Shown here piece by piece: positions 1 to 3,339 of a DNA stretch of 64,000 nt (the first letter of the stretch is position 1; every line of letters starts with the position of its first letter). The position numbers and the translations under genes are program-made. The stretch comes from Daphnia pulex (Eukaryota > Arthropoda > Branchiopoda > Diplostraca > Daphniidae): assembly GCF_021134715.1 (NCBI RefSeq), contig NC_060017.1:7564001-7628000 (forward strand), read 5' to 3'. Under the pieces are notes generated by a model. The model ran no database searches and was not told the origin of the DNA. It saw nothing but the letters and a program-made list of their open reading frames with translations.

Positions 1-573
1 TCCGCGTTTGGAGGCCAGGAAGGAGTCCAAGGACGGTCACCTTTAGGTTGGTCTCTGTCCGTCACAGAAATGGAATTTTGGCGCCGTGAGCCCTAGGCTT
101 CGTATGCTCGTCATGTTTTGAAGCTGTGTCCTTTAGATCCCCTTGATCAAGAGCCTTTATCCTCTCTTTTGAGCCTGCTGATTCATCATCATGATTAATC
201 ATTCATCATACAAGCAATTTATTTCGGAAGGAGGGGCAGGGCGGCTTGAATGCCTTTTGAAGAAAGGCGAACGTCTTTTAGAGCCCTATCACAATCGTGT
301 CATCATTCTTACCTTTTGATGGCCACGTTTTTGTCAAATCGCTTTTTCTTTTGTAGAGACGAAGCAAAACGCCGCTTTGAAAATTGTTCTTTTCAAATCT
401 TGATGGAGGATGTGGGAAAGCTTGTGATTCCTTATGATAGAGGAGAATTTTTCCTGACGGCTCGGGCTGACAGAATTGATCTGTTTTCAGGCACAGAAGC
501 AGAAATCATTGATTATAAAACGGGGCACATTCTCACAGATATTAGGATTAAAGGGAGATTTGCTCGGCATTGA
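1..573 (+). pseudogene. addB: AddB helicase-nuclease subunit, C-terminal nuclease domain (broken)
   Basis: AddB is a subunit of the bacterial AddAB double-strand-break repair enzyme; its C-terminal PD-(D/E)XK domain cuts DNA. In frame 1 the remnant reads SVTEMEFWRREP, then a TAG stop at 94-96, then YARHVLKL (103-126) and PLDPLD, which is the block that precedes the nuclease domain in alphaproteobacterial AddB. Further stops follow near 195. From 250 the same frame reopens and carries TARADRID (457-480) and IDYKTG (508-525), the catalytic core with the acidic and lysine residues of the nuclease motif. The match fades after 540 and ends at a stop at 571-573. The helicase part would lie left of the window. 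The gene cannot make a working protein. Confidence 0.8.
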
Positions 574-828
574 CAAGATATCTGAGGAAGAATCATTTGC
601 TACAACTTTTAGAATAATCCCCTTTATAGGAGGAATGGCCAATTGTTTCCACAGAAAGGGCAGCATGGGTATTGTGTCCAGGCTTTCCGCTTTCCTGCAC
701 GGAAAGCAATAAAGAGGGCCCCGCATAAAAATAAATTGTTTTTCACCAGAAGAATTCCTTTTTTTCATCTCATTTCTAATTTGCCAAAAAAGGTAAAATT
801 AAGTTTCCCGTTTTACAAATGAAAAAAA

Positions 829-1053
829 ATGAAAGCGTGTTTTATTTTTAAGAGGGAAGAGCTTCCCGAAAGAGCAACTTGTTTTCATCTCTATCAAATA
901 CTTGTTGCCCGAAGTTATTTTGAACCTTTTGCACAAGAGGGGAGGGATTTTGAGCTTTCGAATATTCTAGGGGAGGGGAAGTCAGTTCCTAAATTTTTTA
1001 TATTTTATAGAATAACCTATATTTTAAAGAAGGTGACAGACGTCATAAAATGA
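829..1053 (+). other. Unidentified open stretch in the bacterial segment
   Basis: A 74-codon open stretch begins MKACFIFKREELPERA and is rich in charged and aromatic residues in a way that looks like real protein. No family was recognised. It sits between the addB and ampG remnants and may be a piece of a third bacterial gene. The preceding 600-828 holds only short open stretches with no recognisable motif. Confidence 0.25.
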
Positions 1054-1123
1054 GCATGGCGGGAAAACACCACGAGAGTAAGGAAATAGTCTTAAGGAAG
1101 CCTATTTGAAAGGGTTCCTCACA

Positions 1124-2040
1124 TTATTGGCCAAAGGATGCGGGCACAGTACCCGAAATAAGCTTAAAAGCGTATTGAGTGGCGGTAAAAGGCGGTCTAC
1201 AACGCGTTGCGATAAAAGCGACAAAAACCGTCGTGGCAAGACCAGAGGCAAAATTTTCTGACCCCATCACAAAAATAAGCTGCGGGATTGGGTATCCCAC
1301 GTAAGCCTGCTGAGTCATCAAAAGGCAAGAAAGGATCTGAAGACTAATGGCGATGTGAAGGCTGTTCAGGACGCCTTTTATGACTAAAAGCCCCCTCCTG
1401 CAAATCCTCCCAAAATCATGGCGATTTTGCCTAAAAATTTTGGAATTTCTATGAGGCCTGATGGACGGCGGTTTTTCTTCATCATTTGAAAGGGCACTCT
1501 TTTCGGTTCAGAGCTGAGTTGGTAAACTTAAGACATGGCAATAAAAGAAGAAAGATAGAGAGCTCCAGCCCCTGAAACCAAAAGCCCTAGACAAAACCCA
1601 AAACAAATCGTAGAGGCCATAGTGCCGCGGCCCGCGGGCTTTTTTGGAGGTGATCTCGACACGATAGTTCTCAAGGACCAAGTCTTGAGCGGCAGCACCA
1701 GAAAGAAACATAAAAAGCCATGGTGGCTGTTAACCATAGATGTTAGTGTGGGTGCATCATGCCGAGTCCTAGAAGAAAGAGCATGAACTGGCGAGGGCGC
1801 AACTGTGTATTTGGCCTAGGCGATTTGTGAGATAAGGAAGGTAAAAAGAGTCAATCCAGGGGCTCCTTAAAAAATTTCAATGTAAAAGGCAAGGTGACCA
1901 ACACAAAAAGACCAATGGTAGTCCGCCAGCAGTTAATCACTAAAAATCCGTCACCCTTGCTTCCATAAGCACTAAGGCACTGAGGGTAGAAAGGGTTAAG
2001 AGGGAAGTCAGTCCACTGGAAAACCCCAGACGGAAAAAAA
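1124..2040 (-). pseudogene. ampG: AmpG-family muropeptide MFS permease (broken)
   Basis: AmpG is an inner-membrane major-facilitator protein that imports cell-wall muropeptides. Reading the minus strand, the N-terminal signature TIGLFVLVTLPFTLKFF is at 1861-1919, followed by KEPLD and a TGA. The next block, AAAQDLVLENYRVEI, matches the ASQDIxIDAYR region of the family (about 1640-1690). A frameshift near 1625-1640 moves to another frame carrying LGLLVSGAGALYLSSF (about 1540-1600). The later block ENFASGLATTVFVAFIA plus PFTATQYA is at about 1180-1262. These are the expected blocks in the expected order, but spread over at least two frames and interrupted by stops. Family length is about 420-500 residues; roughly two thirds is represented. 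Confidence 0.82.
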
Positions 2041-2289
2041 TAATAGATTGCTTGGATAGCCTGGGGATTTTAAAATTTCACATCAATATTGGTCTCTTTT
2101 AAGACTCGCCTCCAAATTTTCTTTATTGTACCCCTGCTTTCCTTTTCCAACAATTCGATGGAAAGAAAAGGGAATAAAACCTAAAAGTGCTTAAGTATGG
2201 CACCCTAGGAAAAAGCTACTGCAAAGGCCTCAAGGAGCCTTAGGTTTTCGTGACAAAGCAAATCGAAGCAGAAAATTTCATTCTTCTGG

Positions 2290-2600
2290 ATTTTCATTTT
2301 GAGAGACCTTTCATGCCATATCATGTCATGTCATAACTCATGGAAAGTCCTAATCAGACGTCTTCTTGATTTCCTTTTCTGGAAAAGAAGGGATCGCAAA
2401 TTTTTCCTTGAATTTCCGAGGGAATGCTAAGCCCATTATCCAGAAATGAAAGGACGGCTTCTCCCTCTTCTTTCAAAACTAAAATCAGAAAACGCGGAAA
2501 AGCTTTTTGAGGCTCATTTTCTTCTTCTTTAAAAAGCGTGATGACTTCAAAACCATTACTCACAATTTTTTGATCTGTCATTAATTTATCATCCATGACA
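2290..2600 (-). pseudogene. Sensor histidine kinase, ATP-binding domain (broken)
   Basis: The minus strand encodes the HATPase_c core of a two-component sensor kinase. The G1-box region reads DNGLSIPSEIQGKICDPFF, close to the family form DNGxGIPxEIxxKIFDPFF. After a TGA at 2354-2356 the same frame continues with LGLSMSYDM (about 2327-2350), matching the G2 box GLGLSMSYDI, and then meets another stop. The phosphoacceptor-His domain is not recognisable. It lies in the same orientation as and just upstream of the ampG remnant. Confidence 0.7.
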
Positions 2601-2649
2601 AGGCTTCCAAAAGGAATGACAAAATTTTTTAAATTTTTCTCGAAGTATT

Positions 2650-3060
2650 CGGGTTTGAGGGTTCTATAAAAAAATGAGGATTCACATAACTGAGGGACCA
2701 GTTATTAGTCTCCTTAAATAGAAAAACTGGGCCATCCCGTATTGGAACTCATTTCCAGGATCGAAAATTCGAGGTCATATGATTGTTGGATCCAAAAAGG
2801 GTCCACCCAAGGTGGGAAATAAAGCAAAGGAAAGAAAAAGTGTACATTTCGAGGCATAAAGCTAATAGAGTTAATGAAGGGAAAGAGTAAAAAAAGGAGA
2901 CTCATCTTTTTAGGCATCCGTTCCATGAGTTTGGTTGTGACAAAAGTATCGTCACTGGATAGATTTTGATTACGACCTCAAGATGTAAAAGCCCCTTCCC
3001 TTCTTTCAGTTTTTCCGGAAGAACGTCGATTGAAGCATAGTATTTGTTGGTGCTCACCAG
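2650..3060 (-). other. Possible N-terminal part of the kinase remnant
   Basis: Minus-strand open stretches continue upstream of the kinase core: a hydrophobic run (MSLLFLLFPFI) followed by LEFSILEMSSNTGWPSF, and before it, in another frame, STNKYYASIDVLPEKL. They could be a membrane anchor and sensor part of the same kinase with frameshifts between blocks. No specific domain was recognised. Confidence 0.25.
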
Positions 3061-3339
3061 CGGAAGTAGAAAAAAAGTGGGTTTAAGAGTTTAGGGGCTT
3101 CAGGAAAATACTTTAAATCAGATTTATGAGATTAATGAAAACGTTAAGACTCGAATATCATTTTCGATAAAAACAATTATTGTGGGCTAGTTTTGGACAT
3201 TAGGTACGGCGAGAAAAAGAGGCCATTATCCAATTCAAATGTTGACATGAAATTCAAATTTTTTTGCAAAAATGACTGAAACCCTACTCGCTTTAAAAAT
3301 ATCATTTTGCGAAAAGAATATAAAAAAAAAAACAAATAG

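What the first reader, a model, noticed from the sequence alone, without database searches (positions are those of the whole stretch)
1..3150. Decaying bacterial gene cluster at the edge of an arthropod contig
addB, ampG and histidine-kinase remnants are directly readable, and each carries stops or frameshifts. Beyond about 3.3 kb the DNA is host-type repeat shared with 60-62 kb. The simplest reading is an old transfer of symbiont DNA into the nuclear genome, now drifting. A living symbiont would be expected to keep at least one of three adjacent genes intact, although degrading symbiont genomes exist.
Basis: partly seen in the sequence, partly recalled or inferred. Interest (0 to 1): 0.75.

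Follow-up and report, generated by a model that had tools for sequence, protein, structure and literature searches.

The report
Fossil bacterial genes in Daphnia chromosomes
A stretch of water-flea chromosome carries wrecked bacterial genes that entered the nuclear genome long ago, broke down, and were copied to other chromosomes; this is a clear case of a known kind of event, with no sign that the genes still work.

Summary
The window is internal to an 8.3-Mb contig (C1:7564001-7628000 of a 133-Mb, 13-contig assembly; the host is almost certainly Daphnia pulex), so position 1 is a window edge, not a contig edge. A bacterial block (window -145 to 3108) holds remnants of alphaproteobacterial addB facing ampG and a probable sensor histidine kinase, each broken. 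At 3109 it passes sharply into a repetitive host sequence. A longer copy lies on C8 and a short third fragment on C5. C1 and C8 share stops at the same aligned bases and two ampG frameshifts, and have since diverged by K2P 0.104, equally at the three codon positions, with mostly frame-breaking gaps. So an already broken copy was most likely duplicated inside the host and then drifted. A protein from another D. pulex record carries the same addB piece, about 90% identical to the C1 copy, behind a retrotransposon gag, which argues against an assembly chimera. The donor is an alphaproteobacterium on a long branch with no close relative found; a symbiont is inferred. Old, neutral lateral transfer plus host duplication: a new member of a known kind.

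The parts
1..573 (+). addB remnant (C-terminal half; continues upstream to window -145). TAA at 196-198 and TGA at 247-249 and 571-573 bound profile-matched frames and stand at the same aligned bases in the C8 copy
574..1060 (+). presumed strongly decayed end of addB (no profile match at E<3 past profile position 896; assigned by position only)
   Evidence: inference
1144..2109 (-). ampG-type muropeptide transporter remnant, convergent with addB; 2 stops, 13 frameshifts as aligned; TAA at 1528-1530 shared with C8
2205..3090 (-). probable sensor histidine kinase remnant upstream of ampG on the same strand (limits approximate); ATP-binding region readable at 2354-2701
3109..4139 (.). host repeat, starting sharply at the bacterial junction; 4 of 5 other copies inspected align from exactly 3109, the fifth from 3112
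3105..3114 (+). AAAATACTTT, also present at window -158 to -149: possible target-site duplication, ambiguous
60461..62351 (.). further copies of the host repeat that follows the junction

Best explanation
A piece of an alphaproteobacterial chromosome, at least about 4.6 kb and perhaps about 6.4 kb, carrying addB facing an ampG/histidine-kinase pair, was inserted into the nuclear genome of an ancestor of Daphnia pulex. It had no function there and collected stops, frameshifts and deletions. After it was already broken, parts of it were duplicated within the host genome (longest copy on C8, a shorter one on C1, a fragment on C5), probably by repair of broken DNA, since the left end of the C1 copy lies inside addB and no common transposon end is seen. 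The copies then drifted. Shown: bacterial origin, host flanks, copies, shared and private damage, neutral pattern of divergence. Inferred: the DNA-repair mechanism, the donor being a symbiont, C8 standing closest to the original insertion, one transfer rather than several, and the reading of C8:326180-327967 as bacterial.
For: Families. AddB profile 242-896 and AmpG profile 17-368 run in order through the C8 block. Copies: window -145..3109 against C8:331363-327967 in two pieces of 86% and 89%; C5:4265712-4265974 and 4266195-4266268, 75% and 78%. Damage shared at the same aligned bases in C1 and C8: three stops that end profile-matched frames (addB TAA 196-198, addB TGA 571-573, ampG TAA 1528-1530), a TGA at 247-249 that precedes one, and two ampG frame changes of the same size, at profile 47/48 and about 147. 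Other breaks are private, e.g. indels. Drift: 308 differences in 3188 sites, K2P 0.104; 68/670, 59/670 and 59/668 differences at codon positions 1, 2, 3 of eight pieces, p=0.62; 28 gaps, 23 not a multiple of three. Host flanks: on the right; the left flank from -3200 to -150 is 92-93% identical to C8 near 4.09 Mb. Host repeats reach C8:326180 on one side and begin at about 332565 on the other. Independent record: P0037 (Daphnia pulex DAPPUDRAFT_105537) carries the addB piece, 92%, 100% and 82% identical to C1 over 38, 19 and 28 aa, and 70-73% to C8.
Against: No reads were seen. No close bacterial relative was found (highest summed AddB score: 42% over 376 aa; short stretches up to 55%), so some shared breaks could already have been in the donor. 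The stop at 571-573 would not be a break if the donor's AddB ended about 100 residues short of the profile. In the C8 stretch 326180-327967 the four open pieces tried gave no Pfam family, and one 98-aa piece of it found nothing in 385 alphaproteobacterial genomes. The order of events rests on shared damage and one short C5 fragment.
Confidence: 0.92

Rival explanations
1. Assembly chimera or contamination: bacterial contigs wrongly joined to Daphnia scaffolds.
For: The genes are clearly bacterial and no read data could be inspected.
Against: Three places on three contigs, no N in the stretches held, shared plus private damage, neutral pattern of divergence, and the same piece in a protein from another D. 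pulex record behind a host gag.
Confidence: 0.02
2. Several independent transfers from one bacterial lineage whose genes were already pseudogenes, rather than one transfer and host duplication.
For: Donor lineage looks fast-evolving (AddB end branch 3.5); shared breaks could be inherited from a decaying symbiont genome; C5 is more diverged than C1 and C8 are from each other.
Against: The shared breaks and equal change at the three codon positions since the split need only one broken host copy; independent transfers would need the same breaks fixed in the donor before all of them.
Confidence: 0.1
3. A living but degrading symbiont genome whose contig was picked up.
For: Three adjacent broken genes resemble a decaying symbiont genome.
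Against: Host repeats and a host segmental duplicate flank it in a multi-megabase contig; copies lie on three contigs.
Confidence: 0.01
4. A domesticated bacterial gene or functional RNA in Daphnia.
For: A gag-addB gene model (P0037) exists in another D. pulex annotation.
Against: Longest stop-free run 127 aa in the C1 block and 176 aa in the C8 block; codon positions change equally; no Rfam match at gathering score in the window. Expression was not tested.
Confidence: 0.02

Closest known systems
Transfers of endosymbiont DNA to animal nuclear genomes, e.g. Wolbachia DNA in Brugia malayi (PMC3849323; title and start of abstract seen in the listing)
   Same: Symbiont-type DNA in a nuclear genome, duplicated in the host
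   Different: The donor here is not identified below class, and the copies are broken and diverged by about 10% from each other, whereas that title speaks of recent, transcriptionally active transfer
Arthropod genes made by fusion of host and transferred sequence (PMC13389597; passages seen), including two clusters confined to D. pulex and D. pulicaria
   Same: The gag-addB protein P0037 is a fusion of host and bacterial sequence in D. pulex
   Different: P0037 looks like a gene model over a retroelement beside a pseudogene; whether it is one of that paper's clusters was not tested ('AddB' has 0 occurrences in its main text)
AddB of the AddAB helicase-nuclease, alphaproteobacterial type (TIGR02786)
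   Same: Profile match and colinear order over profile 242-896
   Different: Broken in both copies examined; only ancestry is claimed

Membership tests
Bacterial DNA transferred to an animal nuclear genome | Sequence of bacterial origin | tested here: met
   addB_alphas and AmpG family matches, colinear with the profiles, close convergent spacing
Bacterial DNA transferred to an animal nuclear genome | Joined to host DNA on both sides in the assembly | tested here: met
   for C1; for C8
Bacterial DNA transferred to an animal nuclear genome | Junctions crossed by reads at host depth | not testable with these tools
   no reads held
Bacterial DNA transferred to an animal nuclear genome | Present in an independent genome record of the host | tested here: met
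   P0037 of Daphnia pulex
Pseudogene (no protein function) | Broken frames and equal change at the three codon positions | tested here: met
Donor in Holosporales or Rickettsiales | Clusters with that group in a gene tree | tested here: inconclusive
   query falls on a long branch without a supported neighbour; no row of the 47 others is named as either order, and the unnamed rows could not be assigned
Transposon-carried duplication | Copies share transposon ends at their borders | tested here: inconclusive
   the left end of the C1 copy lies inside addB of C8; no repeat was found at the right end in C8, but that search scored only 40 of 291 candidates; target-site duplication ambiguous

The most novel reading that the evidence does not exclude
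The retroelement gag fused to the bacterial addB fragment in another D. pulex record is a real, expressed gene, so decayed bacterial DNA is being recruited into a host or retroelement gene.
Probability: 0.05. Interest if true: 0.6.

Novelty: new member of a known kind. Interest (0 to 1): 0.33.

Why it matters
It is a clear record of bacterial DNA entering the germ line of a model crustacean, with copies that let damage before and after duplication be separated. It also offers an explanation for a puzzling annotated Daphnia protein and warns that such fusions can be gene-model artefacts. Biologically it is an ordinary fate of transferred bacterial DNA. No report of this insert was among the papers listed by the searches made (15 of 313 shown; all 4; all 7; none found), which cover open-licence papers only.

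Tried and rejected
Donor search. AddB and AmpG pieces against 385 alphaproteobacterial genomes gave many distant matches: 297 of 385 for AddB at E<=1e-3 and 15 of 385 for AmpG at E<=1e-12. The best AddB genome, G090, has 71.5% GC at the locus and is alone in its order here; I judged it an unlikely donor. In the order of G287, which holds the best AmpG match, 2 of 10 genomes had AddB at E<=1e-6. Two further protein searches seeded with other AddBs did not come closer. A quick tree left the query on a branch of 3.5; it used 47 of the 86 AddB rows collected: all those from the genome search and every second one of the rest.

Insertion mechanism. I looked for the left flank beside five other copies of the right-hand repeat and did not find it. 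The left flank continues differently in its paralogue near C8:4.09 Mb. A 10-bp word shared by both borders occurred in 51 of 20000 random site pairs, but part of it is native to each flank, so I do not claim a target-site duplication.

A 98-aa piece at C8:327151-327444 that looks bacterial to me by eye found 0 of 385 genomes at E<=1e-4 and no Pfam family; NCBIfam gave only an E 0.1 match. It stays unassigned.

A TGA at 317-319, common to both copies, was first counted as a shared break; its frame depends on how the gap before it is aligned, so I no longer count it.

Full report
What the window is. The window is C1:7564001-7628000 of an assembly of 133,188,837 bases in 13 contigs; C1 is 8.3 Mb long. 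Position 1 is therefore a cut made by the scan, and the block can be followed to -145. The host is almost certainly Daphnia pulex. A protein of that species (P0037, DAPPUDRAFT_105537) came up in the search with the addB pieces; its gag part is 95% identical to a stretch of C10 of this assembly; and 133.2 Mb is the size quoted for D. pulex in PMC12926508 (passages seen). That the assembly is that of clone KAP4 (RefSeq GCF_021134715.1, named in PMC13322756, passages seen) is a guess from size and from my recall of 12 chromosomes plus the mitochondrion.

The bacterial block. On the + strand lies the C-terminal half of addB; on the - strand lie a probable histidine kinase and then ampG, so ampG and addB converge. 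NCBIfam names addB_alphas (E 3e-7 in the window; 6e-15 and 1.1e-21 for pieces of the C8 copy) and the AmpG family (E 1.2e-14). With profiles built from 86 AddB rows and 7 of 10 AmpG rows (3 under 400 aa dropped), the C8 copy is colinear with AddB positions 242 to 896 and AmpG 17 to 368 (some single pieces are weak, E up to about 0.05). The kinase is the weakest assignment: E 0.004 in the window, no Pfam match, but the C8 copy matches the ATP-binding end of an 805-aa HisKA/HATPase_c protein at E 1.9e-6.

How broken it is. A frameshift-aware alignment gives 2 stops and 4 frameshifts for addB in C1, 2 and 14 in C8; for ampG 2 and 13 in C1, 4 and 18 in C8. Scores are 425 and 944 for addB (C1, C8) and 494 and 563 for ampG (C1, C8), against 41-51 for three shuffles of the C8 addB sequence. 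These counts depend on the penalties I chose, and some neighbouring frameshifts are probably one event. The longest stop-free run is 127 aa in the C1 block and 176 aa in the C8 block.

Copies. The block from -145 to 3109 matches C8:331363-327967 at 86% and 89% in two pieces. The C8 copy goes on: addB continues to about C8:332575. Host repeats stop at C8:326180 on one side and begin again at about 332565 on the other (both searches give lower bounds for repeats), so the C8 block is about 6.4 kb if the unassigned 326180-327967 is bacterial, and about 4.6 kb if not. A third fragment on C5 (4265712-4265987 and about 4266184-4266268) matches two separated parts at 74-78%.

Order of events. At the same aligned bases C1 and C8 carry addB TAA 196-198 and TGA 571-573 and ampG TAA 1528-1530, each ending a profile-matched frame, and a TGA at 247-249 that precedes one; ampG changes frame by the same amount in both copies at profile 47/48 and about 147. 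The stop at 571-573 counts only if the donor's AddB was of usual length. Other breaks and indels are private. The common ancestor of the two copies was thus already broken. Since then 308 of 3188 aligned sites differ (K2P 0.104, transitions 166, transversions 142). In eight pieces with known frame, differences are 68 of 670, 59 of 670 and 59 of 668 at codon positions 1, 2, 3 (p=0.62), and 23 of 28 gaps are not multiples of three. That is drift without selection on protein. With the D. pulex rates of 2.3e-9 to 4.53e-9 per site per generation quoted in PMC12926508, K/2u gives roughly 11 to 23 million generations since the duplication; the transfer is older. This ignores gene conversion and rate differences.

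Junctions. At window 3109 the sequence passes into a host repeat: the query 3080-4300 has 82 matches including itself (several can belong to one copy, and only 40 of 79 candidates were scored), and copies on C2 (two), C9 and C1 align from exactly 3109. In the five copies inspected the sequence goes on upstream in a way not seen here, so the C1 copy of the repeat is cut at the junction. The left flank from -3200 to -150 is 92-93% identical to C8 near 4.09 Mb. The 10-bp AAAATACTTT stands at both borders (-158 to -149 and 3105-3114). A shared 10-bp word was met in 51 of 20000 random pairs, but parts of it are native to each flank, so a target-site duplication is possible, not shown.

Independent record. 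P0037 is a retroelement gag followed by an addB piece. Its addB part is 92%, 100% and 82% identical to C1 (38, 19, 28 aa) and 70-73% to C8, and it reaches further left than the C1 copy does here. So the C1-type copy was once longer and has been cut in this assembly, or P0037 represents another copy. No gag match at E<=1e-3 lies in the C1, C8 or C5 stretches held. I read P0037 as a gene model across a retroelement and a pseudogene; expression is untested.

Donor. AddB pieces match alphaproteobacteria only distantly: the highest summed score is 42% over 376 aa, with short stretches up to 55%. In a quick tree of 48 rows the C8 pieces sit on an end branch of 3.5 (median 0.43) with no supported neighbour; the tool warns that the place of such a row is unsure. 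Decay in the host, about 0.1 per site between C1 and C8 and about 0.2 to C5, seems too small to explain that length, so the donor lineage was probably itself fast-evolving, which fits a host-associated bacterium. A review of Holosporales mentions Holosporaceae-related sequences in the microbiota of Daphnia cf. pulex (PMC11909080, passages seen); that is a lead, not a test, since no named member of that group was in my set.

Prior reports. Searches for Daphnia with lateral gene transfer and endosymbiont (313 papers hold at least 4 of 5 terms, 15 listed), Daphnia with Holosporales (4 papers), Daphnia pulex with horizontal gene transfer and bacterial origin (7 papers) and any two of Holosporales, addB and ampG (0 papers) listed no paper that by title or abstract start describes this insert; beyond listings I saw only the passages named above.

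Verdict. An old, functionless transfer of bacterial DNA, duplicated within the host: well supported, and of a known kind. On checking, the list of shared breaks was changed (one dropped, others added) and confidence moved from 0.93 to 0.92 because some of the shared breaks depend on alignment.

Noticed in passing
P0037 (Daphnia pulex DAPPUDRAFT_105537): Annotated 566-aa protein made of a CCHC-type gag and a fragment of bacterial addB; probably a gene model over a retroelement beside the pseudogene.
   Followed up: partly
C8:333264-333454 (L011): A piece of about 190 bp, 95% identical to C5:8922380-8922570, that reads to me like an immunoglobulin-type muscle-protein exon (recalled; no Pfam match), lies beside the C8 bacterial block with a short repeat.
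   Followed up: no
C8:320634-321829 (L010:634-1829, minus): Remains of a DDE_1 transposase near the C8 insert (Pfam DDE_1 E 6.3e-15).
   Followed up: no
C8:325207-326180: Element with inverted ends reaching the edge of the C8 block; relatives on C2 and C12.
   Followed up: no
window 51519-52826: Three tandem copies of a 435-bp unit, 98% matches; neighbouring sequence also matches 62.7-63.3 kb and, inverted, 12.9-13.3 kb.
   Followed up: no
window -158..-149 and 3105-3114: Ten-base direct repeat AAAATACTTT at both borders of the C1 insert.
   Followed up: partly
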